From Perkinsus marinus ATCC 50983 (Eukaryota > Perkinsozoa > Perkinsida > Perkinsidae), in NCBI RefSeq assembly GCF_000006405.1, contig NW_003210321.1:359472-423471 (forward strand): 64,000 nucleotides of DNA, written 5' to 3'. The notes beneath the pieces were generated by a model that saw nothing but the letters and a program-made list of their open reading frames with translations, did no database searches and was not told where the DNA came from. The translations under genes and the position numbers were made by a program. This document shows, piece after piece, positions 30,407 through 53,871 of the stretch (positions are counted from its first letter, which is position 1; every line of letters starts with the position of its first letter).

Positions 30407-31208
30407 ACCACCGAAGACTAGATTGTCAGGCTCGGCAAAGACCACGAATGTGGATCGAGCCCTGGCCGCCTCCGGTCCTGCAGCCATACACTCCTCCAGA
30501 GCCCGTTGCCAGAACTTAGGTCTCAGCTCGCCCGACAGTGGTCCTCTGCTGGGCTCTTCGGATACCTCCAGAAGGTCCAACTGGATGGGCCTGGCTTACT
30601 CCCTACCCGAACGTGAAGATGCAGCCCTCCGTCCGTCGAGTCCAGCTGAGTGAGCAGAACGCAGCTGACGAACTGCTCGACGAGCTGCTGTTGGTCGGCG
30701 GTTGCGAAGACGAAGACACCAACCAGCTCGACATCCGCGTCACGCGCCACGAAATTCCTGAGGCACTTCTCATCCCCTCTGGAAAGACACTATCCAACCT
30801 CACCTAGCCTGCTGAGCATAAGCATTCAAATGCGTATACGCTGTATCAGCCTTCGTCCGCTGGGCCTCACAAGCCGCTAACTGGGAAGCTCCTGCGTCGC
30901 TCCGCCCTCCTTCACTGAACATTGGACGTATCCCATTGTCAAGATCACCCATCGTCCCACCCGAGTAGGGTCGCCTTGAGATGTCGTATTTGATGTTGCA
31001 GTTGCAGTCTATCATCTGTGAAACCCTTATTTTTCCCCTCGTACTCCGCAACGACGGCCTTCAGCTCCTCCTCAGCCTTTCTCGTCCTCGACTGTACATC
31101 CACGACCTCCTCATGAATCTTAGCCTTTCTCTTCTGAAGGCATTGTATTGCCACTACCGTCTTAGCACGAAATTTCATAAAAGTTCTGTCGGTTCTATCC
31201 TGCCCGGT

Positions 31209-31320
31209 GTTGGAATGTCTATGTTCATTTTCCTCAGCTAAGCTCGACATCAACAAGAATATCCTCATAATTCTCATATTGTCGCCAACACACGTAGTTG
31301 ACCATGTGCATATTCTCCCA
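31209..31320 (+). repeat. Dispersed repeat family copy B (shortest)
   Basis: Begins GTTGGAATGTCTATGTTC, with TTTTCCTCAGCTAAGCTC, then CATATTGTCGCCAACACACG, GTAGTTGACCATGTGCATA and a final TTCTCCCA. The variable middle is shorter than in the other copies (112 bp in all). Confidence 0.85.
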
Positions 31321-33358: not shown

Positions 33359-35439
33359 ATGAGTTTAACAAGATTCGTCTTGAAACTAAACTATCGCGAC
33401 GAGTGCGTCCGAGTACGACCGGAGCCGCAGTACTGTACGAGGTTCACCCACATCTTAGAGTAGGCAGTCTATGGGTACCGGACTGGACCTTATTCGTATC
33501 TTCTCAGGTACATCAAGGAGACCTGGCCGGAGCTGTCCAGGGCCGACGACTTCAGTGTTTACTACTACGATGAAGCCGGCGACCGTTGCACCCTCAACGA
33601 GAGGACCCTCCCTGACTGTCTTATGCTGCTAGGGGAGCGCAATGCTTATAGAGTCACTGAGGAGCTGCCGGTCCTCATATTGGACATTGAACGCTATCGT
33701 GGACGTCGTCCCCTCCCTCCACCGCTGTGTAGACCACCTCAAGTGATGGAGGGAGCCCCTTGGGGTATCGAACAAAGGATGGGCCGGCCCATGAGGGCTC
33801 ACTGTGAGCCGGTGTCCAAGGGCGGCTTTGAGGGAATGCAGGTGAAGTCTGTGGTTCATCATGGGTTCGTGTGTGATGGCTGTGAGATGGACCCTTTAGT
33901 GGGAGACAGGTAGGCTGGATAGGTAGAGCCTTGCTGTGGAAGGATTTCTGTTGTAGGTATAAGTGCAACTACTGTGATGACTTTGACTTCTGTTCGAAGT
34001 GTTTCGACAAGAGATTGGTATTGGGTCACAACCCTTTCCATGCCTTCACCCGTTACAAGATTCCGGAGAGGCCGGTCTTTGCAGCGACCAACAGCTGGTC
34101 CGATAAGAACACTATGACGGCCGCCTACTCTGTAGAGGAGAAGTCTGTTGGGGACGCTCCTGTAACGCCTCCGACCAAGTCCGTTGGGACTCTGCCGGAG
34201 CCCCAGGCTACTCGAGACGAGGGCGTCCAGTGGGGAGAGGTCAAGCATTGTACACTTGCTGGACCTTGGGGCAGTATGGACATCTTCGTCGATGGTCCTA
34301 CTAGAGAAGACGGCCCTGTATTGGCGACCGTGGGCCAGCCCAGTATACCCTCAGGGGCCGGAGCTCGTGATAGCTTCGCAGTGGATGCTGGTGTGCACCT
34401 AGGCATCGAGTGCGACTGCTGTGAAGAGCTGCCTATTGTCGGCCCGAGGTGGGACTAGTGAGTTGGTGTGTATGTCATAATGAGCGTGTCAGGTACAAGT
34501 GCGCGGTCTGTCGAGATTACGATCTCTGTGAGGAATGCTTTGAGTCCACGTGCCCAGCCAAGTCTCATGACCATCCGAGAAGCTCGTTCTACAAGCTAAC
34601 TCCTCTGGAGACCATCGAGATGCGCAAAAAGTCGGGAGCTTGGACTGCCAAGTGTCAGCAGTCAGCAGCCCCAACGGTGGCTGTTCCCATTGAGGAGGCA
34701 GAGACCTGTGGTGGGTCCATGATTGGACCGATCGCAGTGGTCAACCCTGAGCCAGAACCCGTGGGGTGAGTCGGTTGAACCACTGTATCGTTGGAAGGCT
34801 CGTTGGTCTGTAGGGTGGTCGAAGCTGCTGCTGCCGAGCCTGAGGTGGACGAGGAAATTGAGATGGAGACGCCCCCGGCTGAGAGCACCAATGATGGTAG
34901 TAGTGACCAGGTGCGGCTGTGGGTAGATATGGCTCCGTGTTAGGCACTGCTTCTGAGTCGGGGAGTTGGATGGACCTGGGGGAAATTGGAGAGGATATCA
35001 TGTCGGTTGGGACACCACGTTCTGACCAGTTCCAGGTTAGTCATTGGAATGCCTTCGTGTAGTGTTGCACGCTACTTGTCGCTATTTTAGATTATCCAAG
35101 CGTTTGATGACGACTCGTTGGGAGATGAGGTCGAGGTAGGATACTCTCGATGGGAGTTGAATCATCATCTCATGCAGCAGGTTCCGGAGGCAGATGCTGG
35201 GAGTGTCACCGTGCATAGCTTGGCTGAGGCTATGGTACATCATGGAGTGGCCGAGAACAGGGCAAGGGCTGAGTTGGTGATAAACCAGGTAGGCTTCTCT
35301 CGTACCTCCTCACCTTGGGATGAATAGCAATGCCATTACTCGTGTGCTAATGAGGTCGCAAACATTTTTTCGTCTGTAGATATCCTCCAACGAAGAGCTC
35401 CGTGGAAAGCTGAGTGCGTTCCTGAGGGAGATTCAATGA
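33359..35439 (+). CDS. PB1-ZZ protein 1 (p62/NBR1-like; basic and acidic PB1 faces)
   Basis: First of five tandem paralogues. Exon 1 (33359-33459) starts MSLTRFVLKLNYRDECVRVR and splices in phase 2 (intron 33460-33506) to YIKETWPELSRADDFSVYYY, then DEAGDRCTLNERTLPDCLML: a PB1 domain with the beta-1 lysine and an OPCA-like acidic loop YYDEAGD. Two ZZ-type zinc fingers follow, each split by a phase-2 intron: FVCDGCEMDPLVGDR / YKCNYCDDFDFCSKCFDKR (intron 33910-33956) and IECDCCEELPIVGPR / YKCAVCRDYDLCEECFEST (intron 34449-34492). The C-terminal part is acidic, has a LIR-like GSWMDLGEIGED, and ends in helices (VHSLAEAMVHHGVAENRARA) with TGA at 35437-35439. By family knowledge, PB1-ZZ-LIR proteins polymerise and tether cargo to autophagosomes; that role here is inference. 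It differs from genes 2-5 in having two rather than four ZZ units. Confidence 0.85.
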
Positions 35440-35771
35440 TGAGCTCCGTGTCGAGTCCGAATTTGCTAGTAGCAGCATCTGTCCCTCTCGTCGTTGTGAC
35501 TGGACATTTTTGCATTTCTGAGAGGTGGCAAGTTGAAAGTATCATCATTTACCTTTTCATTTCATCCCATGGTAGTTGTCAACCTATTTTGATAGTTGTG
35601 ATGGTAGTATGTAGTATGCCGTTTTCATGGTGATTATGCTAGAGAGAGCGTCAGTCTGACAGACCGCTCCCTCTAGTCTGTGGTCGAGGATGCTCATACG
35701 TACATAACTTGCTTTTCGTGTTGCGTTAATATCAATAGACACTCCGCTGGTCTTTGTGGAGTTCTGAGATT
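35440..35771. other. Spacer between PB1-ZZ genes 1 and 2
   Basis: 332 bp without supported coding. An imperfect inverted pair AGAGAGCGTCAGTCTGACAG near 35642-35661 was noticed. Otherwise nothing distinct. Confidence 0.4.
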
Positions 35772-38002
35772 ATGGGTAACGTGTTCGTATTGAGAGTGAA
35801 GTTCGCGGGTGAGTCCTTTAGAACTAGGATAGTAGCGGAGATGTTCGAGACTGTGAAGGATGTGAAACGGTAGGAGTGTTGGCATCTTCGTCGTGAGCAT
35901 GGCTTTGTTGTATCAGGTTGATAACCGAGGCGTGGCCACATCTAAAAGGCGAGAAATTTGAAGTATTGTTACCGACTGGGGAGACCTTCTGGGAGCTGGG
36001 AGATGAGAAGTCTGTGCTGGAGCTGGTGGAGGATGCACCTAAGGAGCCCTGTGGGGTGTTACCGGAACTGAAGGTTGAAGTCAAGCTTGCTGCATCGTCA
36101 TCGAGGAAGACTGCAACGAGTGTAAACCTCACTGCAGGGAGTGTGCCGCTCCCGATGGACAAGCATAGGGTTGCCAGTCTTCACTTTTTACAGTGTGACG
36201 ATTGTCACATGTTCCCGATCGTTGGGAAAAGGTGGGTATGAGGTAGGCTTGTAAGCTTTGTTTTTGAGTTTGATATGCGCGACTTGAATTTCATCGTGGA
36301 GTATGTCTGAATCACTTGTTTTACAGTAGTCGTCGGAAAATTAGTCGTCGAGGATGCACTGTTTTAGATGGCGCGTACTTCATGGTATTTTGGGTGAGGT
36401 ACATATGCATCGGCTGTTGTCCCAAGAGTGTTGACCTCTGCTATCGATGCCATGCTGATCATGACAGCTCTCATAAAACGGTTCTGTATAATCACAGTAT
36501 GGATGGTGTGTGGAACGATCAGAGATTTGATGATGCTGATCGAGGGTGTCCGAGAGATATGAAGAGGTGGGAGGGTCGACTTGGGCGGCGACTGCAGTAT
36601 GAGAGGCAGGTTTGATAAGCTGCAGTTGAGGCACAGTTCGGTGCCTATAATGGTTGCCCAAGTGTATGAGCGAGGGAGAGGGAGCAACAAAGTGGTGTCA
36701 TGTTGCCGAGATGGTACGGCTGACACGAGGTATCTCTTGAGATGCCATTCCTGTGGGGACTGTGACACTACCATTAGAAGGTATGAGTTGTCTTAGTCTT
36801 AAAGTAGAGCTATGGTACAGGTTCAAGAGTGATTCGAGAGATGATATCGTCCTATGCGAGATGTGCTATCTAGTGCACGCGGCTGATGTCCTCAAGGTTG
36901 CGTACAAGTGCTCTCGTTTGGTCAGTCCGGGCTTCTGGGATGGTCCGGGATCGGATACCGTATGGAAGGCTAAGCACTTTCATGTTACGTGCAATACGTG
37001 TGGGGAGTCCCCGATTGAGGGAAGGAGGTAATAGGGAGAGCCCTGTGAGTTGGAGTTATCCACCTGTTGCGCTCTCTCCTAACGGGAATCTCTCGGCTTG
37101 AAAGTCTGTTATGTTGCGCCCAAACTAGGACCCTCCATATGTAGTTCATCTTTATATCACGACCGTCGGGCTTCTCATGTAGTGGATCCAGCTTGTGACA
37201 GTCCTCGCCCTACGTTCTCTGACTGCTCTCGCGGTGTTTGGTCATTTTTGAGTGGTCGTAGAGATCGTGTTTGGAGGTTGTTTCATGAGCACTGACAGTG
37301 TTCGAGTCGAGACTGAGGTAACCCTCAGGTACCATTGTGCGGTATGTGCTGACTTTGACTTATGCGCCACTTGCTATAAGAAGCCTACGAACAAGCAGCA
37401 CAGGACTGACCATTGCTTTACCCTTATAGCTAAGCCGGTGACTCTGTGGAGTGTCAAGACTAGGGAGCCTAGGGGCGTCCCATTGGGAGACCTGCCTTGC
37501 GAGATGTGTCACAATAGGGGACAGGGAGGTGGCAGGTACGGATGCGGTGAGTCGTCACCCTCACGATGACTGTGTTGAGATACACTCTTCGTTCCTTGTT
37601 CGCTACTCCAATGAGGGATGCACACTTCTGCACGGAGTGTTATAAGGCGATGCTGGAGAAAGAGGCAAGAATCCTTCGTAGTGCGAGCGGTAGGATGTCG
37701 CCATGGGCTATCACCAACAGGGCTAGAAGCGAGGCTCTCTCTGCCCCGCATAGAAGTGGGTGATGCTCAGTAGCTGGTCGGTAGTGATCGTTCAGACATA
37801 CGTCGGGCGGGTCGTTCGGAGCAGCCCTCGGACGTGATCCGTGAGATCATGCAAGCGGTGAGCGAGAGAGAACGAGAGCCTTATGAGGTGTGCAGTGTGG
37901 CCTTGGTCGGGCATATGGTGTTGATGTCAGTCGATGTGGGCAGAGGAACCTCCCAGAGAGCCCCAGGTCCATGACAGATTCCTTGCTGTAAGACTAGAGT
38001 AG
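35772..38002 (+). CDS. PB1-ZZ protein 2 (four ZZ units, WAEEPPR tail)
   Basis: Exon 1 starts MGNVFVLRVKFAGESFRTR and joins LITEAWPHLKGEKFEVLLPT across the phase-2 intron 35870-35916, giving a PB1 domain with the basic strand but no OPCA acid cluster (EVLLPTGETFWEL). ZZ unit 1 is QCDDCHMFPIVGKR / YICIGCCPKSVDLCYRCH, split by a longer intron ending at about 36411. Unit 2 is degenerate (RCHSCGDCDTTIRR / YRFKSDSRDDIVLCEMCY). Unit 3 is TCNTCGESPIEGRR / YHCAVCADFDLCATCYKK. Unit 4 is PCEMCHNRGQGGGRY / FCTECYKAMLEKEA. The tail needs a very short intron near 37755 to reach SDVIREIMQAVSEREREPYE, then a 43-nt intron to SMWAEEPPREPQVHDRFL, with TAG at 38000-38002. A stop at 37761-37763 is the alternative end. 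Confidence 0.8.
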
Positions 38003-38488
38003 GAAGTCTGGTCCAGTCAGGGTATGTGAGGTCAATATTGCCTTGAAGGCGCCTCTCATGTGATTCCGGCTTGGGACCATTCTTTGATGATGATAATGGT
38101 CCCATTCGGGAATCTAATCCTATTTCCAACTTTTACCAATATCGATTTTATCCCAGCACATGTGAGTCTTATCGAAACATGTTTCAAAGTCCCTTAGAGG
38201 TATTTTCCCGTTAAGACGTCGGACTAGTTGTCTGCAGCTTACAGTGACCAGTCCAACGCCTTTTTCTGGGGTATAGTCCCTGTCCATGTTCATCGTCACC
38301 AGAATCGTATTCAGTAGTTAGAATCATCCTTATCGGAGAACTCAGGCGAGACCTGCGCCAGAGTGGACGAGTACTGAGCGTATTAGTCTCATGATTTCTG
38401 TTGAGGTCTCCACAGCCTGGCTCAGCTTTGCGTTTGAGGGGTCTTCGCTGTGATGGTCGTTACCACTAGTTTCACTTCTCTCATCGTT
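38003..38488. other. Spacer between PB1-ZZ genes 2 and 3
   Basis: 486 bp with only short ORFs. Nothing distinctive seen beyond probable 3' and 5' untranslated sequence. Confidence 0.4.
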
Positions 38489-40484
38489 ATGTGGGAAAAC
38501 AGCTTTTTCATCGTGAAGCTGGCCTACGGCAAGGAGTCACTCCAGTGTAGATGCCCGATGGCTACGATTCGCACTGTGGGAGATCTGCATAGGTAAGACG
38601 GCGACGTGTCGGGCACTGGTCACAGCTCTCGGCCTCTCAGACTGATAGAGGAGGCCTGGCCTAGTCTGGGGACTGTTGAGTATACGGCAACCCTACGTGG
38701 CGGTCGAGAGCTCAGCACCTGGCCTCGTGATCGCCCCATCTCGGCCTTGATCTCGGAGGGCCTCGCTGAGTCGGTGTATATGTTCCCTCGATTGAAGCTT
38801 CGCGTTAAGGCGTCCCAAAAGGGATCCTCGGGGTCCAAGAAGGGGCCCCAGCCGATGGACGGCCACAAGCCTGCATCGATGCACCTGCAAAGCTGTAGGG
38901 AATGCGAGATGTTCCCCATAGTGGGGCGAAGGTAGGCTGGTCGTGATAGGTGAACTATGGAGTACCTTCGGCTGTTCTCAGCTTCAACTGCGCTACTTGT
39001 CCCTCGGGGGTCCTCTGTGCATGGTGCTACGATAAGCATGATAAGCATCATACGATAACACCGTTGGTGATGGCATGTGATGGCGTATGGGAAGGGAGTA
39101 TGTTCACACAGAATGCCCGGGATATGACGGAGATCCTCAGAGAAAGGCATCGTCCTTGGCCTGGTGACACCGTAGAGTAAGTGGGGCCTCAGTCGCGACG
39201 CGTGGCGGTCACCAAGTCAATATTCTTTATACAACAATCATCATCTTCGTCATCTCATTTTTCTTCACAATTTTCTTTGAGAAGAATTTATTGGTTTCCT
39301 TCCTGTTAGCATTGACTCCGTCCAAGTAGGGGAGAATCCTTTCCCTGCGATGGTTGCCGAAGTGTTCTCAAAGTCGGAGGCCCATCATGAGGCCATCACT
39401 TCGGGCTGCTTTGATGATGGGAAGACTATCCTGTGCTATAGGCCCTACTGCCATGCATGTGGAGCATCGGCTCCTCGGATGCGAAAGTGTGACTTCGAAT
39501 TTTCCCACGGCACTTGGTGGTATCACCTTGGTAGGTTCGAGTGTGATGGTAGAGGTGATATCAACCTCTGTGATATGTGCTACATCTTGTGGGGAGGCGA
39601 TGTCATGAAGATCGCATACAAGTGCTCGAGAGTGTTGCTACCGGGGGCGTGGAACCCTGTAGGGCAGGGCCCGTGTCGGCTGGTCCATTATGGGGTTACG
39701 TGTGCTGAGTGCGGAGTGTCACCGATACGCGGACGGAGGTGAGGGGGGAGGATTCAGGAAATTTTTGTATGGCTCTTATCGCACCGTGTCAGGTACCATT
39801 GCGATTTCTGCACAGAATATGATCTGTGCGAAGGCTGCTACAAAGAGGAGGCCAACAGAAAGCACAGGGAGACGCATCTCTTCACTTTGGTGGTGAAGCC
39901 TGTAAAGGTGTGGACGGTCCAGATGAGAGAGCCAAAGGGCACGCTCATGAGCACCATACCGTGCGAAAGGTGTGGCCAGCTGCCCGTTGGAGGCGCTACG
40001 TAAGGGACCATGAACAGCATATGCATTGTCGCACTGTTGGTTGCCCTCAGTTACAGCACGGTGGCATTGCCAGACTCCCACTACTGCTTGCCTTGTTACC
40101 GTGAGGGCCTCCGTTTTGAGGCTCTCTGTGTGCGAGGGCCCTACAATGCCCATTACTACCCTGTCAATAGGGGAGCGTTGAAGATACGTCAAAGGAAATT
40201 GGAAGCTCTCGAGGGTACTATTGCGGTGTACCTGGCGCGGCAAGCTCGTTCCTGAATTGGTAGATTCGCTGGCCAGCTCGTGGCTGATGCAGCCACTCGA
40301 CCGGCAGTTGAAGGGGGAGGAGCCCTTCCCCCTAGAGCCTGACTTCCCTCCAAACCCGGTGAGTATCGCCTTATTGTAGGGAACTCAACGTGCATGGTTT
40401 GAGGTACTATGGGCAGATGAGCCTCCACGGGTGGTGAAGCCTCATCACCGCACTTTGCTCTATCCTTCTCCTACGCCCCAGTAG
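38489..40484 (+). CDS. PB1-ZZ protein 3 (four ZZ units, WADEPPR tail)
   Basis: Exon 1 starts MWENSFFIVKLAYGKESLQC and joins LIEEAWPSLGTVEYTATLRG over the 48-nt phase-2 intron 38593-38640: a PB1 domain with basic strand, no OPCA cluster. ZZ units: SCRECEMFPIVGRR / FNCATCPSGVLCAWCYDKHD; degenerate YCHACGASAPRMRK / RFECDGRGDINLCDMCY; TCAECGVSPIRGRR / YHCDFCTEYDLCEGCYKEE; PCERCGQLPVGGAT / HYCLPCYREGLRFEAL. The tail reads FPLEPDFPPNP, then after a phase-0 intron VLWADEPPRVVKPHHRTL and TAG at 40482-40484. Near 40225-40260 the frame must change, so a very short intron or an indel is present. Conserved exon ends match genes 2, 4 and 5. Confidence 0.8.
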
Positions 40485-40805
40485 CTTGTTGGCATCTTGT
40501 CTTCAATTTTACTTTAATGCCTTTGTGATCTAGCGCTTGATGACCTACATTATAAGTGTGTTGTGTTGGTCACTGTTGGGATAGCGGGTTGTTCCCATTT
40601 TTGTACAGTTACTGTTCTTCAGAGGGGGCCATAGACATGGCCAGAGCTACAGATATGTCGCGCGCCAGAGAACTCAGTTGTGGTCAAAAACGTGTGCGTA
40701 GGCGTACTGAGCAAAAGACTAACTAGGAGTAACAGAGTAAGTTGGTTACTGGTCCCTTCCTCCCAGTGCAGCTCCTATGGTTGGTTCTATTAGGTTATCA
40801 TCGAG
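40485..40805. other. Spacer between PB1-ZZ genes 3 and 4
   Basis: About 320 bp without supported coding. No repeat-family copy here, unlike the next spacer. Confidence 0.4.
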
Positions 40806-42756
40806 ATGGCGAACGACTACGTCCTCAAAGTGAGCTATGGCGGAGAATCTCTTCGCGTCAAACTGAGAGTTGACAAGTTCACGACGATGGGGCAGTTGAG
40901 GAAGTAGGCGCGGGTAGCATATGGTGATAGTGGACTTGGTTTCGATTCTGTAGGCTGATCGTAACAGCCTGGCCTTTCCTCGAAGAAGGTGTGTGCAAGG
41001 TTATACTGCCAAACGGTGGTGTATTGGGACAGAAGGGCATTAAGACTCCGGTGGTCGCCTACTTGCCGGCGGACCGCAAGGACCCGTCAGGGCATGTTCC
41101 TGAACTCAGGCTCAAGGTTGAGTCATCGGAGAGCCCTAGTGTGTCGGCACCGTCCGTGGGACAGCAGGAAGGGGTGCAGGCTGTCGATGGGCATCCTTTG
41201 GCGGTGACCTATTGGGAAACATGCGATGGGTGTGGGATGTTCCCGATCGTGGGGCAATGGTGAGGGCTCGTCTATGGAGCATGGTCTAGCTTTGGCTCTT
41301 TAGGTATATCTGCTTTACTTGCCGTCAGAAGGACCTGTGCTTCGCGTGCCGCAATGGACACGCTGGTGGTCATAAGGTGATCTCCTATGCTCCCTCTGTT
41401 GATGGTATTTGGGAAAATTATGGTCTATTCGAGAGTCTGCCTCGACAAGCTTTCAAGCTGAGGGCCCTGGGTGTTCCAACAGTGCAGCCGAAGTTCGAGT
41501 AGGTGTTGGCTCGGGAGATTGGCTTGTGTACATGCTCAGATGCGGGCGTTTCTCTCAGTTGCATAGTCTGACGTAGGTTCGAAGATATCCAGAAAACGCC
41601 TTTACCTCCAATGCTTGCCCGTACTTTTGACGAAGATGAGATACCGGATGATGTCCTCGACCGTTCATGCTATCGCGATAGGGACAAAGCGATGCACTAC
41701 TCAATCTTCTGCCACTGCTGCAGTGCGACTGTTCCGAGCGCCAGAAGGTAGCAGTCATCGGCGATTATGGTAGTCAACTACGTTCGCATTACAACGTTTT
41801 AGCGCGAGTAAAACCGGTTGTTGGTCATGCCTGTCGCTGCTCGGAGTGCTATGATTTCAAGCAGGTTCAAGAGTGACACCCGTGCTCCTATCAATCTATG
41901 CGATACATGCTATCCTCTTCATAAGGACAACGTCTTGGCTCTGGCCTATAAGTGCTCGAGAGTATGGGAACCTGGGCGCATGGCAGTGCGTGACAACGAC
42001 AGGCCGTTCCTAGCTGTCCACGATGGAGTTACTTGCGCTGAGTGTGAACGATCTCCGATCACTGGTGCCAGGTGAGGCGGTTGTTTTCATCGTACAGCCA
42101 TGGATGGTATCAGGTACACCTGCCTCATCTGCTCGGACTTGGACCTTTGCTCCCGATGCTATCAGAGTCGAGCTCAAGCCGGCCACAAGGAGGGACATGC
42201 TTTTGGAATGGTTGCTAGCATGGTCACTCTGTGGTCGCTGAAGATGAGAGAGCCTCGAGGGACCCCCATTGGAGATATGAAGTGTAGGATGTGTGGTAAC
42301 CATCCTCGAGGTGGAGCCAAGTGGGTGTCGATGGCCTTGCCTGTGCACAGCCAGTGCTCACAATAGGTATAGGATGAAGACTGATCCGCCCGACAGTCGC
42401 AATGCTTTCTATTGTCAATCTTGTTACCAGAAAATGCTGCAGAAGGAGGCGTTGCAGCTACGGGCGCCCTTGGCCAGCGGTATGAGTCACAGTTCTTTAC
42501 CGTGGGCTCAGTCGGCCAGGACCAGGAGTCGGACTCTACGTGTCGCCCTTAAAAGTAGACGGACGAGAGCTAAGCCGTGGATGGTTATGTTGGTGCTGTT
42601 ACAGGTTCGCTCGCCTCGCGACTCAACACTCAGCCGCCCGTGATACAGTTCATCAGAAGGCTGGCCCGTCAAGCAGGGCGTTTTGATATTATTGATGACG
42701 ATGATGATTCTGACTCTGTGAGTGCCTTGGGACTGTTGTTGGCCAAGAGCTTCTAA
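40806..42756 (+). CDS. PB1-ZZ protein 4 (four ZZ units, acidic LIR-like tail)
   Basis: Exon 1 starts MANDYVLKVSYGGESLRVKL and splices in phase 2 to LIVTAWPFLEEGVCKVILPN: a PB1 domain with basic strand only. ZZ units: TCDGCGMFPIVGQW / YICFTCRQKDLCFACRNG; degenerate IFCHCCSATVPSARR / RFKSDTRAPINLCDTCY; TCAECERSPITGAR / YTCLICSDLDLCSRCYQS; KCRMCGNHPRGGAK / AFYCQSCYQKMLQKEA. The C-terminus reads VIQFIRRLARQAGRFDIIDD followed by four more acidic/Ser residues, then GLLLAKSF and TAA at 42754-42756. FDII next to a run of Asp fits the LC3-interacting-region pattern (aromatic-x-x-aliphatic with acids). The WA(D/E)E motif of genes 2, 3 and 5 was not found. A repeat copy starts 7 bp after the stop codon. 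Confidence 0.8.
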
Positions 42757-42762
42757 GCAATG

Positions 42763-42929
42763 TGGGAAATATGTACATGGTCAGCTACGTGCGTTGATGA
42801 CAATGAGAAAATTATGCGGAAATTTGGGAAATTATTGTCGAAATTCGAGCTGGGAAAGTCGTGTTTTAATTTTCAGTGTAGTGAGGAAACTCTAGAGCTC
42901 AGCTGAGGAAACTGTACATGAATTGCAAC
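42763..42929 (-). repeat. Dispersed repeat family copy C (inverted)
   Basis: Same element in reverse orientation. Its reverse complement starts GTTGCAATTCATGTACAG, then TTTCCTCAGCTGAGCTC, and ends CATTGTCATCAACGCACG, GTAGCTGACCATGTACATA and TTTCCCA. It lies between PB1-ZZ genes 4 and 5. Confidence 0.82.
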
Positions 42930-43350
42930 ACTCATTCCAGGGGCGGCTACTGGTGGTTTGTGTCAGTTGGAGTGGGTCGTTGAACCGCCAAAGGAGTTCA
43001 AGACTGACCACAAGTTCTACGATGGGCCTGGGAGATGAGCGATTATGCGTTGTCGTCTTGGGGAAAAAGAGCAAGCGAACGAGTGATTTATCTCAGCCGT
43101 CGGTGACTAATCGATTTTTGAATTTCATTATCCTTTCAGAGTTCAACTTAACAATAATCGACTTTTTCCAAACCTAGATTCTCGAGTTTAACACAGAGTT
43201 TCTGTCGTCGGGATTCCAACTCTGAGTCAGCGCTGTGTGGACAGTCGATGAGTGTCGCGCAATGCATTGTGACGACGCTAGTAGAGGACGACCAGTGTCA
43301 CCCCTCGTGGCGAACATTGTTGTAATCGTTGGTGTAGGGTGTTGTTGGCC
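42930..43350. other. Spacer between repeat copy C and PB1-ZZ gene 5
   Basis: No supported coding. Together with the repeat it forms the roughly 590-bp gap between genes 4 and 5. Confidence 0.4.
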
Positions 43351-45265
43351 ATGTTCGCCGATTCCTTCGTCGTGTTGAAGCTTCACTACGGTGAGGAGTC
43401 CCTGCGCTGTCGATGCCCTCTGAAGACTGTGAAGACAGTGAGTGATCTGTACAGGTAGTCCTAGCTCCCAATCGTGTCACCACATCGCCTCTCCTCAGTA
43501 TCATCGAAGAAGCTTGGCCAGCATTGGGTAAGGGTAGCGAGTACAGCGTGCAAGTGCATAAGGGCAATGCCTTGTCCTCTTACGGGAAGAACACCAGCAT
43601 CAGCATGCTACTCAGCAGGCATGGTGTGATGCGCGTTGGTTCTCCTAAGGAGCTTCGGCTCGATGTTGGAGGAGGGCCTGAGGTCACTCCAGTGCATAAT
43701 CGTTCGTCAAATCCTCCGAAGCCTAAGGATGGTCATAACGTTGCGGTCCTGCACATGGACCTCTGCTACGATTGTGGGATGGGGCCGATCATCGGCCGAT
43801 GGTGAGCAGCGTAGAGTTGTTGTCCTCCTGTTGTCATTATATCTTAACAGTTACAAGTGTATGACGTGTTCGGACCGGACGTTCTGTTCGCGTTGTTTCA
43901 AGGGTCATGACCAGAGCCACACCCTCACTGTAGTGAGCATGGCCGAGGATGGTATATGGGACAGTAGGCCCGACGACGTCGCCAATGAGCGGTTCCTACG
44001 TGATATGCGCAGTCTAGGAGTCCCATGGCCCGGCGATGTCGCAAAGTAAACCACGGTGGTTCTGTCCCAGTTTGAGTAGCTTCCTTTCAGGATCAAGGAC
44101 TTGCAGCTTCCTGATCAAACCTTCCCTATGATGATCGCGGAGACCTTTCCCAAGAACGACCCGCCGTCGGAGTCCCTTCGAGCCCTCCTGTGCAAAGACG
44201 GCTGCTCTTTCATCAGCTATAGGATATTCTGCCATTGTTGCAGTGGCGCGACCAACAGGGCCAGACAGTACGGACGGATCGTCATTTTCGCGAGCAGATA
44301 TCGTATCAGGTTCCGTTGTGACGGTCTCGGTGGTGATATAAACTTATGCGATTCTTGCTACCTCACTCATCGTAGTAAGATTTTGAAGATCGCCAACAAA
44401 TGTTCGAGAATTGTTACACCGTCCTTTTGGAATGAGGGCAACACCGAAGCTGTTGAGCTTATTCATTATGGTTCGATCTGTGACGGCTGTGGGGTGTCCC
44501 CAATTGTGGGTAGAAGGTAATGACGGGTTTACGGTAGGGGACAGCAGATTGTGTCACGAGCCGTCTTGCCCTTAGATACAAGTGCAACTACTGTGCCGAG
44601 TACGAGTTGTGCAGTAGATGTTTCAAAGAGCCTGCCAACAAGCAACATCGTTTGGAGCATCTGTTCACTTTGATCGCCAGACCAGCAAAGCTATGGACTG
44701 TTCATACCAAGGACCAGAAGGGTACACTTTACAGCGAGATGGCTTGCGAGATGTGCGGCGTTCTCCCCCCGGGGGGTGCTAGGTGACACTGGTGGTCTAG
44801 AGAGGTTCTGCAGCTGTCCATAGGTACACTATAAAATGCGACTGTAAGGCTCAGATGTGCCTCGACTGTTACAAGGACGATCTCCAAGGGCAGGCTGTTC
44901 TACTACGGGGAGAGTTCTTTGACTACCCCAACCCAGTGAGCTTACAGGCCTCGGCCGACAGAGAGCGACAACGACATTTGTTGAAAAGTAAGTATGGAGT
45001 GCCTTTGTCCACTATCATTCACCGTTGTAGTATCTGTGGCGAGCACCCTTCCGATGGGTCCGATGGCTAAGGTCGCTAGGCTTGAGGCTGAGGGAAAGAC
45101 GGTGAAGCAGGAGGATAAGCAGACAAAAGGAAGGGTAAGTCTCTACTCGTTTTGATCAAGCCTTAAATCGTCTTGTAGATCATTTGGGCTGATGAGCTCC
45201 CTCGTGAAGTGAAGCCTCATCACAGGGTGGTCCGTAGTAGTTGTGGCTGTGGCCATCGCCACTGA
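43351..45265 (+). CDS. PB1-ZZ protein 5 (four ZZ units, WADELPR tail)
   Basis: Exon 1 starts MFADSFVVLKLHYGEESLRC and joins IIEEAWPALGKGSEYSVQVH in phase 2 over a 44-nt intron: a PB1 domain with basic strand only. ZZ units: LCYDCGMGPIIGRW / YKCMTCSDRTFCSRCFKGHD; degenerate IFCHCCSGATNRARQ / RFRCDGLGGDINLCDSCY; ICDGCGVSPIVGRR / YKCNYCAEYELCSRCFKEP; ACEMCGVLPPGGAR / KCDCKAQMCLDCYKDD. The tail contains a charged helix KVARLEAEGKTVKQEDKQTK, then after an intron IIWADELPREVKPHHRVV, a Cys/His-rich end and TGA at 45263-45265. The join near 45055-45065 is unclear; a stop in frame at 45067-45069 is the alternative end. An extra half-finger, HRCSICGEHPSDG, lies before it. Confidence 0.8.
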
Positions 45266-45525
45266 CTGAACTGCTCGGCTGCGAATTCACTCTTCCAATG
45301 CGATTCACTAGTAGAAGTCCCTGGCCAGTACGTACTTGCTTCTCGACACTGGAGTTTAGAGAAGTCATGATTTTGCAAGAAATGTGAATGAATTTTGATC
45401 AATAGTATTGTAAAAAACGCTGTATGGTCAGTTGCTGATCTTTTAAATGTTTCAATTAATTTCCAGCGTCCTGTTGTGTTGATCTGAGGACTCGGTCGTG
45501 ACCGATTGTTGTTCATGTTCCCAGA

Positions 45526-45696
45526 GTTGAAATATATGTTCGCTTCCCTAAGCTGAGCTCGAGAATTTCCTTACTAATTATAGAAGTTTATAGTCAAAAT
45601 AGAAGTGTACATAAACGAACAGGAATATCCTGAACTTTCCTCAGAATTCGCATATTGTCACCAACACATGTAACTGGCGATGTGTATATTTTCCCA
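45526..45696 (+). repeat. Dispersed repeat family copy D
   Basis: Begins GTTGAAATATATGTTCGC, with TTCCCTAAGCTGAGCTCG, a long AT-rich middle, then GCATATTGTCACCAACACAT, GTAACTGGCGATGTGTATA and TTTTCCCA. Confidence 0.85.
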
Positions 45697-45906
45697 AACT
45701 GTCTTGATAGCCGTGGTGACAGGTCACAGTGAGGTTATGTTGATTTCTTGGAGACAGGGGTGAGGGATGAAGTGAACAAACTTGCCCGTGGTAGACGGCC
45801 TTGAACTAATTCAAACAAAACTTTCTCTACAGTGAAGGTCTTGCACGCGATCTGAGGAGCGCATTTGTAGGCAATAGCTGTCTTTCAAAGGCATCTAGGT
45901 GGTAAC

Positions 45907-46069
45907 GTTGTCATTACTGGTACATACTCCCGCTCTCGTCAGCTGAGCTCAGCAGTTCAGAAGCTCACTCACGAACTCGCCCAAAACTATACAGAAACCA
46001 ACAATAATTTCCTAGAATTTTTTCGTTGTCCGAAATACGCGTAGTTTGAACATATGTTTATTTTCCCAT
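45907..46069 (+). repeat. Dispersed repeat family copy E (most diverged)
   Basis: Begins GTTGTCATTACTGGTACATA, keeps CTCGTCAGCTGAGCTCAG, then TTCGTTGTCCGAAATACGCG, GTAGTTTGAACATATGTTTA and TTTTCCCA. It ends at the start codon region of the DHHC gene, so it may provide upstream sequence for it. Confidence 0.75.
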
Positions 46070-47669
46070 GCTAATTGTGGTATTTTTAGCGCTTAAAAAA
46101 GTGAGGATATTATTTTTCCGACAGCTTTTCCTCGTTGGTATTGTCATCATATACGAGCGTCGACCATCCAAGCCGACCAGTAGTGCTGGGGTAAGGGTTG
46201 CCTGGCCCTATGGATTCATGACCTCAATACTGTGCTTCTTCCTCACCTTCCTAGCATACAATGTCTACTTTATAATGGATCATGGCCGAACCAGAGGTAG
46301 TAGGGAGTGCCTAGTCGAAGGCTACTGCTTACTAGCTAGAGCAAGGAAGTAGACGTGGAGGTGTATGTGGACCAACTGCTTAGGTATAGACGCGGGGGTT
46401 GGTGGTGAATGGCAGGCTTGGACGTTGGCCTTGTCCTTCGACATACCATGGCTGCTCTCTTTTGTGTGCTATCTACGGTGAGTACGGCGAGCATTTAACA
46501 AGGGGTATTTGCTCTGCTCTAGGGTACGCATGAACAGGCCGGGCACGGTGCCGCGAAGGTGGACAGAGTACGTCACTAAGAATTCGATACGGATCAGCGT
46601 CACGGAGCAATCAACTTTTCAAGTGGGTCCTCGTCAGTCTTGGATACCCCTTTTCCGATGGTTGTTCAGCCTCGCACCTCCTCGATATGTGGTGTATGTA
46701 TGCGGCATAGACCCGAGAGGGCTCATCACTGTTCGACCTGTGGGCAATGCATTCTGCGGCATGACCGCCATGATTGGCTCACTGGTAGGCATCTAGACCA
46801 CCCTGTATTTCCTAATCTAGATTGGTGAGGTGTAAAATGACATACAGCTTTGGTCATGAACAGTACTCCAGGAAAAATCAGTTGTACTCGTAATCGTTCC
46901 GTGAAAATTCAATCAATCAAATTTTCATCACACTAGCGCAGTGCCAGCGCCTCAGCCGCCTCTCAGGCACCTGCATCGGTTTTCGCAACCACAAGTTCTA
47001 CCTACTATTCCTCTTCTATGGCGCGCTCGCCTCAACAGTGTTCCTGCTCTCTGTGGCGCCCCATTTCTTCGTCCGAGTAAGTGCCTTCTCTCTCCCCTTC
47101 TCCTCGCCATTCGGTCCCCCATAGGTAGTAGTCGCATCCCATGTTGCTGGCAGTGCGACTGTTGCAACTCTTGCCCTCTCCCTCACGGCCGTCCGAATCC
47201 TCGAGGCATCGATCCTCATGGTCGCAGTAATGGGGGTAGCCGACACTCCCATCATCTGCAATGCTTTGTTTTCTCAGTTCCTGGCGCTTCCCTACTTCTA
47301 CTACAACCTCACCGTGCAATGTTCCCAAATTTGCCGTAATATCACAACGCACGAAGCAAGCTATGTCGCTACGAATCCTTACGACCTCGGCACCAGACTG
47401 GCCAATGCTGCAGCTGTACGGAGTGCTTCCTTGCTTATAATGAAGTCTGTTCCCATCAGGTGTTTGGGACAGACTTCGGTCCACTATTCCTCTACTGGCT
47501 GCTTCCATTGGACCCTTGTCGCCCCGAAAGCGATGGTCTATTCTACCCTCTGCCCTCTAGCCCGGAATCGGCGGGCCACGGCTCCGTAGAGGACGGCAAG
47601 AATGCTGACGACTCTATCGAGGCACTGTTGGGAGCTCCCTTTGGCAACAATAAGCGCATTGAAAAGTAG
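46068..47669 (+). CDS. DHHC-family palmitoyltransferase, catalytic motif unreadable
   Basis: Membrane enzyme family that adds palmitate to Cys of target proteins. Exon 1 has hydrophobic segments RQLFLVGIVIIYERRPS and YGFMTSILCFFLTFLAYNVY. The Cys-rich domain reads CGVCMRHRPERAHHCSTCGQ and CILRHDRHDWLT at about 46695-46792, then after an intron SGTCIGFRNHKFYLLFLFYG. Two further membrane segments follow (ALASTVFLLSVAPHFFV; GSATVATLALSLTAVRILEA), then FLALPYFYYNLT, VFGTDFGPLFLYWLLPLD and a tail ending GAPFGNNKRIEK with TAG at 47667-47669. The family is clear from the CRD and the CIGFRNHKF block. Where DHHC is expected the sequence gives DRHD, without the catalytic Cys. The first Met is uncertain. 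Confidence 0.82.
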
Positions 47670-48088
47670 CGAATTGTGGTTAGTTCACCTTTGTCGGTTG
47701 CTCTTGTGACTGCTTTCTGTAGTACTCGTATACCACTCATTCGGCAAATCGGAATTTGAGCTGTTCTCAGAATATTCGACTCGGATATGAAGCACCTCAT
47801 TTTGAAGGGTCGGAAAGGCTACTACCCAACCCAGGACGACAGCCACGCGGAAGAGACTGAACGATTGTGAGTTGAATAAAATGTGGCTGGTAGGAGTGCG
47901 GTATTTCAGAGCGCCTACGAGGAGCAACTCGTACTCGTCTACCTCTTGCATATTGTGAAAGTGTTACTGTGCGTGTACGGTTATTACTGTCATGATCCAC
48001 TCGGATGTGTTTACCCTTTCTTGCTTTGCGTTCCAGTCTCAGTGGTGACACCTCTTCTCTGTCACCAGTTCCCTTGGTCTCTGTATTC
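47670..48088. other. Spacer before MMS19
   Basis: The frame upstream of the MMS19 start stays open from 48005, but I see no exon in the rest. The two genes are in the same direction with about 420 bp between them, presumably containing the MMS19 promoter. Confidence 0.45.
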
Positions 48089-50944
48089 ATGGCGAACCCT
48101 GCCGAGGATACTCCCAATGGTCCTCCGAGCACAGAACGAGGCCTTCAAAACCCCCCTGGGACAGATCCAGTGAGTTTGCTGACAAACAAGAGCACCGGTC
48201 GCTCTGAGCGTGCAATAGCACTGTCCACACTATTGATCTCTATCAACAAGGGCCGCATGTCCCTCCTAGAGCTCGTGCAGCAGCTTCAGTGCAGCCTGGT
48301 TTCTGAGGACTCAGCGGTCCGACGGCTGGCAGTGGAGCTCCTGTCGGATGTCATTGAGCGGTTGCCTAAGCTCCCACTGGGTAGCGTACAAGTGAAGACT
48401 GTTGGACGATTCTTCGTGGACAAGCTCGAGGACTGGGTCTGCATCGAGTACGCTTTGAAGGGCCTTATAGGCCTCCTCACCAACCACGGTCGTAAACTGG
48501 CCTCAGCCAATCTGACAGTAGAGGAGGTCAATAAGGAAGCTGAGACGGACGACTACATCGGCATGCTTCTGACAGGCGACGAGCGCTTCGAGGGATCAAA
48601 TGGGGTTCAGCCTCTAGCCTTCCACTGTGACATTTTTCTCCACGTTATCGTAAAGCACGTATTACTTTACGTTAATGCACCTTCGCAGAGTCAACCCGTA
48701 CGGTATGCCGTGTTGAAGCTGTTGGAGTTGGTGATAGTACAGCCTGAGCTCCGAGACCAGGTTATCAGGTCGAGGGCAGTGGCGAAGGTCTTGGCCCAGG
48801 GTGTGGTCATGGAGTGTGAGGACGAGAGGGACCCTAGGAATCTCCTGCTGGCCTTTGAGCTCCAACGGGAAGTCGTCTGCTTCTATGCAGAGCACCTGAA
48901 TAAGCTTGCGGGAGACGTTAAAAACGCTGAAGAATATTCTGATGGAGGGTTCGAACCTGCGACAGAGCTTGCCAGCTTTGCACAGATAGTCTTCGAGTCG
49001 GCCACTGTGTACTTCCCCGTTAAGTTCCAGCAACGCGACTCCGATGTGGCGGACATCTCCCAAGAGAAGCTCAGTCGATCACTTTACAATGTCCTATTCG
49101 AGAGCGAGGAAGCCATGGTCCGTCTAGCGATGCCCTCCCTCCTGGACGTCCTGGCCAACCCTGAGGACGAGCTCAGCATGCTCACCGCGCAGCGCTACAT
49201 CAGCGAGGCTATCGTTACAAGCCCCTATAAGGAGTTCATCGCAAAGGAGTACTGTCGTAGAACCTTCTCAGTTTGCCTCGACCAAGTGACCAAGGAAAGC
49301 GCGCCATTGAAGTATCTCCTCTGTGAGCTCTGGCTGGCCTTCGTTCGAGAGACCGGAGCCAGCAACTGCCGGGATGCAGTGGAGTCTCTCCTTTTCATGT
49401 TTGCCAAGTCCGCTGAGTCCGACGATGAGGCCAAAGCTGTCGGGGTTCAGCAGCTCCTGCTGGCGAGTGGCAGAGGCAGCTTTGAGTTCTACGATGAGAT
49501 TGCGAGACGGGCTATTGTACCAGCGATGAGTTCACCACAAGTCATCATAGCCAACAAGCATGCGGTGGTAGACTTCTGTATCAAGTTCCTCAGTGAGGGA
49601 ACCATATGCGATGAAGGTCTCGCTGAGCAGGCGGCTGAGTGTTTGCTCAAACTTCAAGATAAGGACATCCAACCGGCGCTAGCAGCAGTGGTCCCAGCAT
49701 GTGGCGCGGACTCCCCCGTAGCGAGCAAGGCCATGAACGTGGCTATTGCTCGTGGCTGGGCGAGTGTTGTTAAGAAGGTCTATCCTCGACATCCTCACAT
49801 CACACTGAATGAGGTCGTCCCTGCCCTGCGGCAACAAGCTCCTCATTCGAGTGCCTTGGCCTGTGCCGTGGTGGCACAAATCTTCGCTGATCATCCGGCT
49901 GAGGCCAAGTCCCTACTGAGCACAATCAGTGTGTCTGAAATAGCGAAGTCGCCGGAGTGGTCAGAAGATGCTTACGACTTCTTAATGGATAGTCTACCTG
50001 AGGTGGCGACTTGGCCATGGCCTCTCATCGTGGCTAGTCCCATTAACGAAGGCTCCTTGGCTTCTCTTGCATGTATGCTGTCGATCGGAAATCAATCTAT
50101 GTGCCAGAAGGTGGTCGCCCTGGTCGAATCCAATCCTCGAAAATTCGCCGGCTTGCTTGCTGGTCTCCCTCGGGATGAGCTCGGTGAATGCCCCGTGTCT
50201 AACTGGTCTGCGCTGTTCGAGTCTGTGGTGATTGATCCCCCAGCCGCCCTCAACGTGCTGGAGGTGTGCCCCGATGATGCATTTGATGCCTGCTTATCAG
50301 GATCTCTGACGAAGGATGCTGATCCTGCTATTTGGGCAACTGTTATGAAGGTCGGGGTAGACCGCGAGCCGTCCAGGGCTATCGAGCTAGGGAAGTCTTC
50401 AATGACAATACCTGGCTTGAAGCAACTCCTCCATAGTAGCGTGACCGAACTGGATACTCCCAAAAAGGAAGCAATAGTCGCCGGCCTATACGACCCTACC
50501 GCAGACGGAGATGTGTCTACATGCCTATTCAGTGCGCTGGAGACGTCTGGTCTTGAACCCTACGGTGACGAGCCCAGGAAGTCTATGTTGTTGGGTTTAA
50601 AGAAGGGCAAAGGCGAGGCCTTCGTATTCGCTTGCAAGTTGTTCCTGCGGCTTCTATCGAGGCCACTGCTGAGGGCGGACTCTCAGAGTATCATCCCTCA
50701 CCTTTGCGATGCGCTCGAGTCCGGGGACTGTCGACCGCTTACGTCGATAGCAGCCTGTCAGTGTCTTTACGAGATTGGTAAGATGAGTGACTTGGCGGAA
50801 CTCATCCCCAAACAGTATTTCCAGGAAGTCTTCCACGCATTGAAGCATCCCTTGGCTCACCATAAGATGGTGGTTAGGCGACAGGCTACCGTAACGTATG
50901 GAGTCTGGATGTGTGCTCAAGTGGATGGATTCTGTGATCGATGA
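48089..50944 (+). CDS. MMS19: MMS19-like cytosolic iron-sulfur assembly targeting protein, single exon
   Basis: HEAT-repeat protein; in other eukaryotes MMS19 works with CIAO1 and CIAO2B to hand Fe-S clusters to DNA polymerases, XPD, primase and other nuclear enzymes. The chosen Met at 48089 (MANPAEDTPNG) opens a 951-codon frame with no intron. The N-terminal part SLLELVQQLQCSLVSEDSAV, VRRLAVELLSDVIERLPKLP and FFVDKLEDWVCIEYALKGLI follows the MMS19 N-terminal pattern. The middle is continuous helices. The C-terminus, VFHALKHPLAHHKMVVRRQA followed by TVTYGVWM, matches the family's final HEAT repeat (LDDKKRLVRKEA..ARGEW). Length is close to the usual 1,000 residues. An upstream Met at 48005 would add 28 residues. 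No intron in 2.9 kb is odd for this window. Confidence 0.85.
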   Translation: MANPAEDTPNGPPSTERGLQNPPGTDPVSLLTNKSTGRSERAIALSTLLISINKGRMSLLELVQQLQCSLVSEDSAVRRLAVELLSDVIERLPKLPLGSVQVKTVGRFFVDKLEDWVCIEYALKGLIGLLTNHGRKLASANLTVEEVNKEAETDDYIGMLLTGDERFEGSNGVQPLAFHCDIFLHVIVKHVLLYVNAPSQSQPVRYAVLKLLELVIVQPELRDQVIRSRAVAKVLAQGVVMECEDERDPRNLLLAFELQREVVCFYAEHLNKLAGDVKNAEEYSDGGFEPATELASFAQIVFESATVYFPVKFQQRDSDVADISQEKLSRSLYNVLFESEEAMVRLAMPSLLDVLANPEDELSMLTAQRYISEAIVTSPYKEFIAKEYCRRTFSVCLDQVTKESAPLKYLLCELWLAFVRETGASNCRDAVESLLFMFAKSAESDDEAKAVGVQQLLLASGRGSFEFYDEIARRAIVPAMSSPQVIIANKHAVVDFCIKFLSEGTICDEGLAEQAAECLLKLQDKDIQPALAAVVPACGADSPVASKAMNVAIARGWASVVKKVYPRHPHITLNEVVPALRQQAPHSSALACAVVAQIFADHPAEAKSLLSTISVSEIAKSPEWSEDAYDFLMDSLPEVATWPWPLIVASPINEGSLASLACMLSIGNQSMCQKVVALVESNPRKFAGLLAGLPRDELGECPVSNWSALFESVVIDPPAALNVLEVCPDDAFDACLSGSLTKDADPAIWATVMKVGVDREPSRAIELGKSSMTIPGLKQLLHSSVTELDTPKKEAIVAGLYDPTADGDVSTCLFSALETSGLEPYGDEPRKSMLLGLKKGKGEAFVFACKLFLRLLSRPLLRADSQSIIPHLCDALESGDCRPLTSIAACQCLYEIGKMSDLAELIPKQYFQEVFHALKHPLAHHKMVVRRQATVTYGVWMCAQVDGFCDR

Positions 50945-53457: not shown

Positions 53458-53871
53458 GCCACGGGTTATTGAGATGGTTGTTGCACATGCTGTCGCCTTT
53501 TTGAAACATGCGACGAAATTATTCTTCTCTATAGAAGAACTCTGCTAAGCTGCTAGCAAAAGACTCTCGACCGTTCTGCACGCGCTTTCGGGCTGCTCTG
53601 GAAGGACCCGCGGTACTGAGGGGATTTGACTAACATAACCGACATTGGATAGGAGCACCTAGACTCCACATTGTCCGGGTTCCGAAATTGGTCTAGAGAA
53701 AGCCCATCGGGAGCGGATCCTTTATGGAGGCCACCATCCGGCAACTGACCTGATAATAAACCTTGATATGAATTTACAGTGAAAATTCATGTGTAAATTT
53801 CACACAACTTTATCATTGGAACCGCTGATACAATCGTTCGAAAGGAACATGACAAACGACTGAGTATGGTT
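53458..53871. other. Intergenic region between opine dehydrogenase and EXO1
   Basis: About 410 bp. A minus-strand 63-aa frame at 53553-53744 has no support. Probably the EXO1 3' and dehydrogenase 5' flanks. Confidence 0.4.

What the first reader, a model, noticed from the sequence alone, without database searches (positions are those of the whole stretch)
33359..45265. Tandem array of five PB1-ZZ zinc-finger genes
Seen directly: five head-to-tail genes on one strand, each with a PB1-like N-terminus, the same first splice (phase 2, into a segment containing AWP or TWP) and repeated CxxC...YxCxxC..DLCxxC ZZ units. Known: PB1 plus ZZ is the core of p62/SQSTM1 and NBR1, which polymerise and carry cargo in selective autophagy. 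Inference: a lineage-specific expansion producing a set of interacting adaptor or receptor proteins. Four ZZ units in one protein is unlike the single ZZ of p62/NBR1.
Basis: partly seen in the sequence, partly recalled or inferred. Interest (0 to 1): 0.88.

Follow-up and report, generated by a model that had tools for sequence, protein, structure and literature searches.

The report
Five tandem PB1-ZZ protein genes
In the single-celled oyster parasite Perkinsus marinus, five neighbouring genes encode relatives of the animal autophagy receptor p62: one looks like a chain-forming receptor and four look like zinc-finger partners that could only dock onto such a chain.

Summary
Window 33359-45265 carries five head-to-tail genes with open frames from start to stop. 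My gene-5 model is identical over 515 aa to an annotated Perkinsus marinus ATCC 50983 protein, which names the organism. They are not five equal copies. Gene 1 is PB1-ZZ-ZZ, a disordered acidic tail with a conserved SWMDL motif (LIR-like), and a predicted three-helix C-terminus (UBA-like in shape, not in sequence). Its PB1 keeps both the basic and the acidic (OPCA) face, and it lacks the FW domain that defines NBR1. That is the layout of p62, which a review calls confined to metazoans. Genes 2-5 are another class: a degenerate PB1-like beta-grasp that keeps the basic residue but not the OPCA core, plus four ZZ units alternating complete, half, complete, half. Orthologues in P. olseni and P. 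chesapeaki show that the gene 2/gene 5 split predates the species. A second haplotype copy of genes 4-5 is intact and constrained. Best explanation: a p62-like scaffold with four one-faced partners carrying diversified ZZ readers. Homology and anatomy are shown; polymer capping, ATG8 binding and cargo binding are inferred. Novelty: new variant of a known kind; ZZ and double ZZ occur in NBR1-type proteins elsewhere.

The parts
33359..35439 (+). Gene 1, 566 aa, 8 exons: PB1-ZZ-ZZ-disordered acidic tail with WMDL-three helices; FW-less NBR1/p62 class
   Evidence: exons 33359-33459, 33508-33909, 33957-34448, 34493-34765, 34814-34896, 34944-35035, 35091-35288, 35380-35439
33359..33694 (+). Gene 1 PB1 (aa 1-96), split by intron 1 (phase 2); beta-1 Lys and OPCA YDEAGD both present (both faces)
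   Evidence: on the P. olseni orthologue model
33845..34044 (+). Gene 1 ZZ1 (aa 147-197), complete; D/E/D/D at the p62 N-degron positions 129/132/147/149
34384..34586 (+). Gene 1 ZZ2 (aa 311-363); D/E/D/D at the same positions; histidines as HxH
34955..34984 (+). Gene 1 LIR-like motif ESGSWMDLGE (aa 455-464)
   Evidence: W-M-D-L identical in 4 of 4 gene-1 type proteins; the orthologue's counterpart lies in a stretch with pLDDT under 50
35202..35436 (+). Gene 1 C-terminal three-helix segment (aa 519-566), UBA-like in shape only
   Evidence: helices between 547 and 589 of the orthologue; pLDDT 85-89 over 551-580, 52 and 72 in the flanking blocks of ten; no sequence support
35772..38002 (+). Gene 2, 501 aa, 9 exons: PB1-like + four ZZ units + WAEEPPR C-terminal motif
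   Evidence: (P. olseni orthologue P0023); last two exons inferred from the shared motif
35772..36088 (+). Gene 2 PB1-like domain, basic residue kept (Arg), OPCA core lost
38489..40484 (+). Gene 3, 505 aa, 9 exons: PB1-like + four ZZ units + WADEPPR C-terminal motif
38489..38812 (+). Gene 3 PB1-like domain, beta-1 Lys kept, OPCA core lost
40806..42756 (+). Gene 4, 507 aa, 8 exons: PB1-like + four ZZ units; C-terminus uncertain
   Evidence: intact in the second haplotype, dN/dS 0.33
40806..41125 (+). Gene 4 PB1-like domain, beta-1 Lys kept, OPCA core lost
43351..45265 (+). Gene 5, 515 aa, 9 exons: PB1-like + four ZZ units + WADELPR C-terminal motif; identical to Pmar_PMAR000850
   Evidence: dN/dS 0.076 between haplotypes
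43351..43673 (+). Gene 5 PB1-like beta-grasp, beta-1 Lys kept, OPCA core lost
43740..43941 (+). Gene 5 ZZ unit 1, complete
44206..44400 (+). Gene 5 ZZ unit 2, half (first zinc site only, one extra cysteine)
44455..44666 (+). Gene 5 ZZ unit 3, complete; best Pfam ZZ stretch of the protein
44721..44914 (+). Gene 5 ZZ unit 4, half (two extra cysteines as CxC)
45185..45226 (+). Shared C-terminal motif WADELPREVKPHHR of gene 5 (counterparts 40410-40451 in gene 3, 37937-37978 in gene 2)

Best explanation
The array encodes a p62-like selective-autophagy receptor (gene 1) and four partner proteins (genes 2-5). SHOWN: gene 1 has a PB1 with both faces, two ZZ fingers, a conserved W-x-x-L motif in an acidic disordered tail, a predicted three-helix C-terminus and no recognisable FW domain. 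Genes 2-5 have a related beta-grasp that keeps the basic residue but has lost the acidic OPCA core, plus four ZZ units. INFERRED: gene-1 PB1 domains bind each other front to back, giving clusters or chains; the W-x-x-L motif ties the assembly to ATG8, which the genome encodes; the C-terminal helices or the ZZ fingers hold cargo. Each of genes 2-5 can plug its basic face into the exposed acidic face of gene 1 but cannot extend the chain, so it acts as a cap or branch that adds its own diversified ZZ reader. This would mirror animals, where NBR1 kept only the acidic face and joins p62 by it.
Against: No interaction, localisation or expression data. The C-terminus does not match UBA by sequence (0.9%; 9 of 100 shuffles as good). 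The double-arginine finger that drives p62 and AtNBR1 filaments is R-x-R here. Pfam PB1 misses all five and PDB sequence searches with the PB1 profiles were not significant for any PB1. The gene-5 N-terminus fits UBX, UBL and LC3 folds as well as PB1, and its model is poor overall (mean pLDDT 43). Four of the seven gene-2-5 type domains keep one acidic residue in the OPCA core. No ATE1 was found, which weakens an Arg/N-degron role for the ZZ fingers.
Confidence: 0.45

Rival explanations
1. Non-autophagic scaffold family: the proteins use PB1 clustering and ZZ fingers to read protein N-termini or modified tails (as HERC2 and Mind bomb ZZ domains do) in signalling or chromatin, with no role in autophagy.
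For: Best ZZ structure matches are HERC2 and Mind bomb as well as p62. No UBA by sequence. The p62 N-degron residue set is incomplete: the position of Asn132 is Glu in gene 1, and the set varies in genes 2-5.
Against: The W-x-x-L motif in an acidic disordered tail is in one of the two most conserved stretches of the gene-1 tail, and 9 of 15 non-Perkinsus relatives of gene 1 carry the NBR1 FW domain.
Confidence: 0.27
2. Gene 1 is a p62-like receptor, but the N-termini of genes 2-5 are ubiquitin-like domains that no longer act as PB1. The four proteins are then independent ZZ proteins that share only ancestry with gene 1.
For: OPCA core lost in 7 of 7. Structural matches are tied among UBX, UBL, LC3 and PB1. 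Direct match to NBR1-type PB1 only 81.5%.
Confidence: 0.2
3. Artefact or decaying copies: mis-split exons of one gene, pseudogenes or assembly duplication.
For: Copies of genes 4-5 occur on a second contig; no transcript evidence was available.
Against: Five separate ATG-to-stop models; an identical independent annotation for gene 5; Perkinsus orthologues of genes 1, 2 and 5; no exon gaps between haplotypes and dN/dS below 1 in both genes tested.
Confidence: 0.03

Closest known systems
p62/SQSTM1 (metazoan selective-autophagy receptor)
   Same: Gene 1: N-terminal PB1 with both faces, ZZ, acidic disordered tail with W-x-x-L, C-terminal helical segment, no FW domain
   Different: Two ZZ units; R-x-R instead of the RR finger; UBA not recognisable by sequence; alveolate, so by descent most likely an NBR1-line protein that lost FW independently (inference, no tree with p62 was made)
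NBR1
   Same: PB1 plus ZZ; all 15 non-Perkinsus relatives found by search carry ZZ, 9 of them FW and 6 PB1 by precomputed Pfam
   Different: No FW domain, the feature used to define NBR1 (PMC9582228, passages)
Type B (basic-only) PB1 proteins such as Par6
   Same: Genes 2-5 keep the basic beta-1 residue and lack the OPCA core; Par6 PB1 is the best PB1 row for the gene-5 model
   Different: ZZ units instead of PDZ; no sequence kinship shown; the structural match is tied with UBX and UBL folds
Other multi-ZZ proteins (P0008 with six ZZ)
   Same: Several ZZ units in one chain
   Different: In genes 2-5 complete and half units alternate, with a phase-2 intron at the same codon of every unit

Membership tests
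p62/NBR1 class (gene 1) | PB1 domain | tested here: met
p62/NBR1 class (gene 1) | both PB1 faces (Lys and OPCA), as in p62 | tested here: met
   5 of 5 gene-1 type proteins
p62/NBR1 class (gene 1) | double-arginine finger for filaments | tested here: not met
   R-x-R in place of RR (PMC6978347 passages)
p62/NBR1 class (gene 1) | ZZ zinc finger | tested here: met
   two stretches, Pfam E 6.4e-22
NBR1 | FW domain (PF16158) | tested here: not met
   0.1% for gene-1 type, 0.1% for the C132 paralogue, 0.3% for genes 2-5 type, 99.6% for the held-out control
p62/NBR1 class (gene 1) | LIR that binds ATG8 | tested here: inconclusive
   conserved W-M-D-L; binding not testable here
p62/NBR1 class (gene 1) | UBA domain | tested here: inconclusive
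   three helices, pLDDT 85-89 over the core; no sequence match; the structure lists were filled by PB1 and ZZ rows
p62/SQSTM1 sensu stricto | descent from the metazoan duplication of NBR1 | tested here: inconclusive
   the organism is an alveolate and PMC9582228 places p62 in metazoans only, but no tree with p62 was made and transfer from a host was not tested
N-recognin ZZ of p62 | Asp129, Asn132, Asp147, Asp149 | tested here: not met
   gene 1 units: D, E, D, D (3 of 4 in both); genes 2-5 vary; binding not tested
PB1 (genes 2-5) | PB1 fold | tested here: inconclusive
   sequence profile 97% and 81.5%; fold is beta-grasp, PB1 rows tied with UBX/UBL/LC3
PB1 type A/AB (genes 2-5) | acidic OPCA motif | tested here: not met
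   core lost in 7 of 7; four of the seven keep one acidic residue there

The most novel reading that the evidence does not exclude
Perkinsus evolved independently, in one locus, a p62-like both-faced PB1 receptor by loss of FW, together with four basic-face-only, four-ZZ partners. This would be a mirror image of the animal p62/NBR1 pair, in which one scaffold presents several different cargo or N-terminus readers. The finger array would have grown by duplicating symmetric phase-2 exons that each join the back half of one finger to the front half of the next.
Probability: 0.3. Interest if true: 0.75.

Novelty: new variant of a known kind. Interest (0 to 1): 0.6.

Why it matters
A review states that p62 is confined to metazoans and uses FW to tell NBR1 from p62 (PMC9582228, passages). 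An FW-less PB1-ZZ-(LIR)-(helices) protein in an alveolate would be an independent route to the same layout. The linked one-faced partners would give a natural test of how PB1 polymers are capped and diversified. Losing one PB1 face to make a partner would then have happened on opposite faces in two lineages.

Tried and rejected
Pfam PB1 on all five models: no hit; gene-1 PB1 alone: no hit. PDB sequence search with the two PB1 profiles gave no significant PB1: PKC iota, PKC zeta and AtNBR1 at E 0.75-1.6 for gene-1 type, behind 14-3-3 and CYP1/HAP1 rows; for genes 2-5 the best rows were designed repeat chains (best E 1e-4, no single stretch significant) and no PB1 was listed. UBA by profile: rejected as unsupported. 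FW in the genome by family search: none, but no control genome rang, so absence from the genome is not shown. The P0010 search gave three short weak matches, on C1 (two, at known ZZ places) and C324. FW in the dinoflagellate relative P0010 was not shown (13.1%; P0012 73.8%), so when FW was lost is open. ATE1 search: none; the control rang in one genome, but an intron-split domain could be missed. 'Five equal four-ZZ genes' rejected: gene 1 differs. 'Pseudogenes' rejected. I considered that the C324 copy is a separate array; at 97.05% over 9.5 kb and colinear into the flanking genes it reads as the other haplotype, though a recent segmental duplication is not excluded. The sequence before it reads N, so genes 1, 2 and most of gene 3 could not be compared. 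The PDB structure lists say nothing about the gene-1 C-terminus. In the tree of gene-1 type proteins the order is unresolved; in the other tree genes 3 and 4 sit on long branches.
Full report
WHERE IT IS. The window lies in a 54.5 Mb assembly, contig C9. My gene-5 model is identical over all 515 residues to hypothetical protein Pmar_PMAR000850 of Perkinsus marinus ATCC 50983, an alveolate of the Perkinsozoa.

THE OBSERVATION. Five head-to-tail genes fill 33359-45265. I sought GT-AG introns, so 38 of 38 GT-AG is by construction; 28 are phase 2. The first intron is phase 2 in 5 of 5 and leads into TWP or AWP. Genes 2-5 share an exon plan: exons 3 to 6 measure 168-195, 171-177, 204-207 and 207 bases. 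Independent support for the models is the identical annotation of gene 5 and Perkinsus orthologues of gene 1 (60%) and gene 2 (59%). Genes 3 and 4 rest on their likeness to genes 2 and 5. Gene 4's C-terminus and gene 2's last two exons are the least certain.

TWO CLASSES. In 5 of 5 gene-1 type PB1 domains (gene 1, its C125 and C132 paralogues, one P. olseni and one P. chesapeaki protein) the beta-1 lysine and the acidic OPCA core are present. In 7 of 7 genes 2-5 type domains the basic residue stays (Lys or Arg) and the OPCA core is lost, with two residues missing from the loop in the alignment; four of the seven keep one acidic residue there. By the A/B scheme in PMC6978347 (passages read), gene 1 is AB and genes 2-5 are B. 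That paper ties p62 and AtNBR1 filaments to a double-arginine finger; Perkinsus has R-x-R instead. Gene 1 carries W-M-D-L identical in 4 of 4 gene-1 type proteins, within one of the two most conserved 8-residue stretches of the tail (7 of 8 columns invariant, tied with EIEMETPP). Its C-terminal helices do not match NBR1-type UBA profiles (0.9%; 9 of 100 shuffles as good). No FW domain is recognisable: 0.1% for gene-1 type and 0.3% for genes 2-5 type against 99.6% for a held-out control.

THE ZZ UNITS. Gene 1 has two and genes 2-5 have four each. Units 1 and 3 of genes 2-5 are complete in 8 of 8. Units 2 and 4 keep only C1, C2, C5 and C6, the first zinc site, in 8 of 8; three of those eight still hold one or two cysteines of the second site. 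My pattern also called gene-1 unit 2 'half' because its histidines are spaced HxH; Pfam scores two ZZ stretches in gene 1, so I count it as complete. All 18 units are interrupted by a phase-2 intron at the same codon (for gene 5 this is backed by the independent annotation, for the rest by my models). Units at the same position in different genes are alike (24 pairs, mean score 146, minimum 79) and units at different positions much less so (72 pairs, mean 33, maximum 91). So the four-unit protein most likely existed before the gene copies split. Gene-1 units match three of the four residues by which p62 ZZ grips N-degrons; Asn132 is replaced by Glu (PMC6098011 passages). No ATE1 was detected, so an Arg/N-degron role is only a possibility.

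EVOLUTION. Gene 5 forms a clade with P. olseni and P. chesapeaki proteins, and gene 2 with two P. olseni proteins, so their split predates the species; no orthologue of genes 3 or 4 was found. Searches of 5.77 billion proteins found the genes 2-5 type only in Perkinsus: 6 of 6 hits; these searches need shared 5-residue words. Gene 1 had 18 hits: 3 Perkinsus and 15 others, all 15 with ZZ, 9 with FW and 6 with PB1 by precomputed Pfam, that is, many NBR1-type. A 97.05% identical colinear copy of 40314-49800 lies on contig C324, most likely the other haplotype. Genes 4 and 5 are intact there, with no exon gaps and dN/dS of 0.33 and 0.076; what precedes reads N and could not be compared.

MECHANISM. 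Shown: domains, faces, motif, absence of recognisable FW, constraint. Inferred from the p62/NBR1 literature: PB1-driven clustering of gene 1, ATG8 tethering through WMDL (ATG8 hits exceed the family cut-off at five places), cargo binding by the C-terminal helices or the ZZ fingers, and docking of genes 2-5 by their basic face onto the acidic face of gene 1. In animals NBR1 lost the basic face and joins p62 by its acidic face (PMC9582228, passages); here the partners would have lost the opposite face.

KNOWN OR NEW. PMC9582228 (passages) says p62 is confined to metazoans and defines NBR1 by FW. PMC7051960 (passages and its Chromista section) reports NBR1 orthologues in SAR as multiple partial proteins in polyphyletic groups, and PB1 with ZZ among protozoan combinations; its main text does not mention Perkinsus. 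So PB1 plus ZZ without FW in protists is not unheard of. I found no paper on these genes in the held library: Perkinsus with SQSTM1, 0 papers; Perkinsus marinus with autophagy and ATG8, 3 papers, none about this by title; the 15 listed of 2,693 hold no mention of Perkinsus, and none of the 10 listed of 437 is about this by title. Most subscription papers are not held. Verdict: a new variant of a known kind.

Noticed in passing
G000:C1:304000-312000 (L040, L041): Second cluster of ZZ-bearing segments (four places) with at least one PB1-like exon (Pfam E 0.018, below cut-off; OPCA-like YLDDEGDWC by eye) and a repeated module resembling PKPxLxxxxxLNxxxxLTPRxxTSV; single ZZ units, a different architecture. 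C34:190771 looks like the same kind.
   Followed up: partly
G000:C132, minus strand, about 45830-44040 (L042): Third PB1-ZZ-ZZ paralogue: Pfam PB1 E 2.3e-6, GSWTEV motif in the tail, glycine/lysine-rich stretch between the ZZ units; its ZZ2 has a phase-2 intron at the same codon. The only one of the PB1-ZZ genes modelled here that Pfam itself recognises as PB1.
   Followed up: partly
G000:C125:46181-48360 and 53541-55951 (L039): Gene-1 paralogue (P0006) followed by a homologue of window 56220-58591, colinear, with no genes 2-5 match between: a paralogous segment.
   Followed up: no
window 40485-40805: 0 differences in 321 bases between the two haplotype copies, while introns of genes 4 and 5 differ by 3.5-4.4%: strong local constraint, gene conversion or a haplotype switch in the assembly.
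   Followed up: no
window 47996-50944: Open frame of 982 aa with an MMS19_N match (Pfam E 5.3e-34).
   Followed up: no
window 46134-47666: DHHC palmitoyltransferase-like gene after gene 5; annotated as one fused protein with the gene-5 orthologue in P. chesapeaki, probably a merged gene model.
   Followed up: partly
window 42757-42900, 45531-45701 and about 31100-31300: Copies of a short repeated element, recognised by eye from similar translations; one adjoins the end of gene 4 and may explain its divergent C-terminus. The 45531-45701 stretch also matches C1 (71.5% over 179 columns).
   Followed up: no
own genome: ATG8-like matches at five places on C302, C137 and C217, some possibly haplotype copies.
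   Followed up: no
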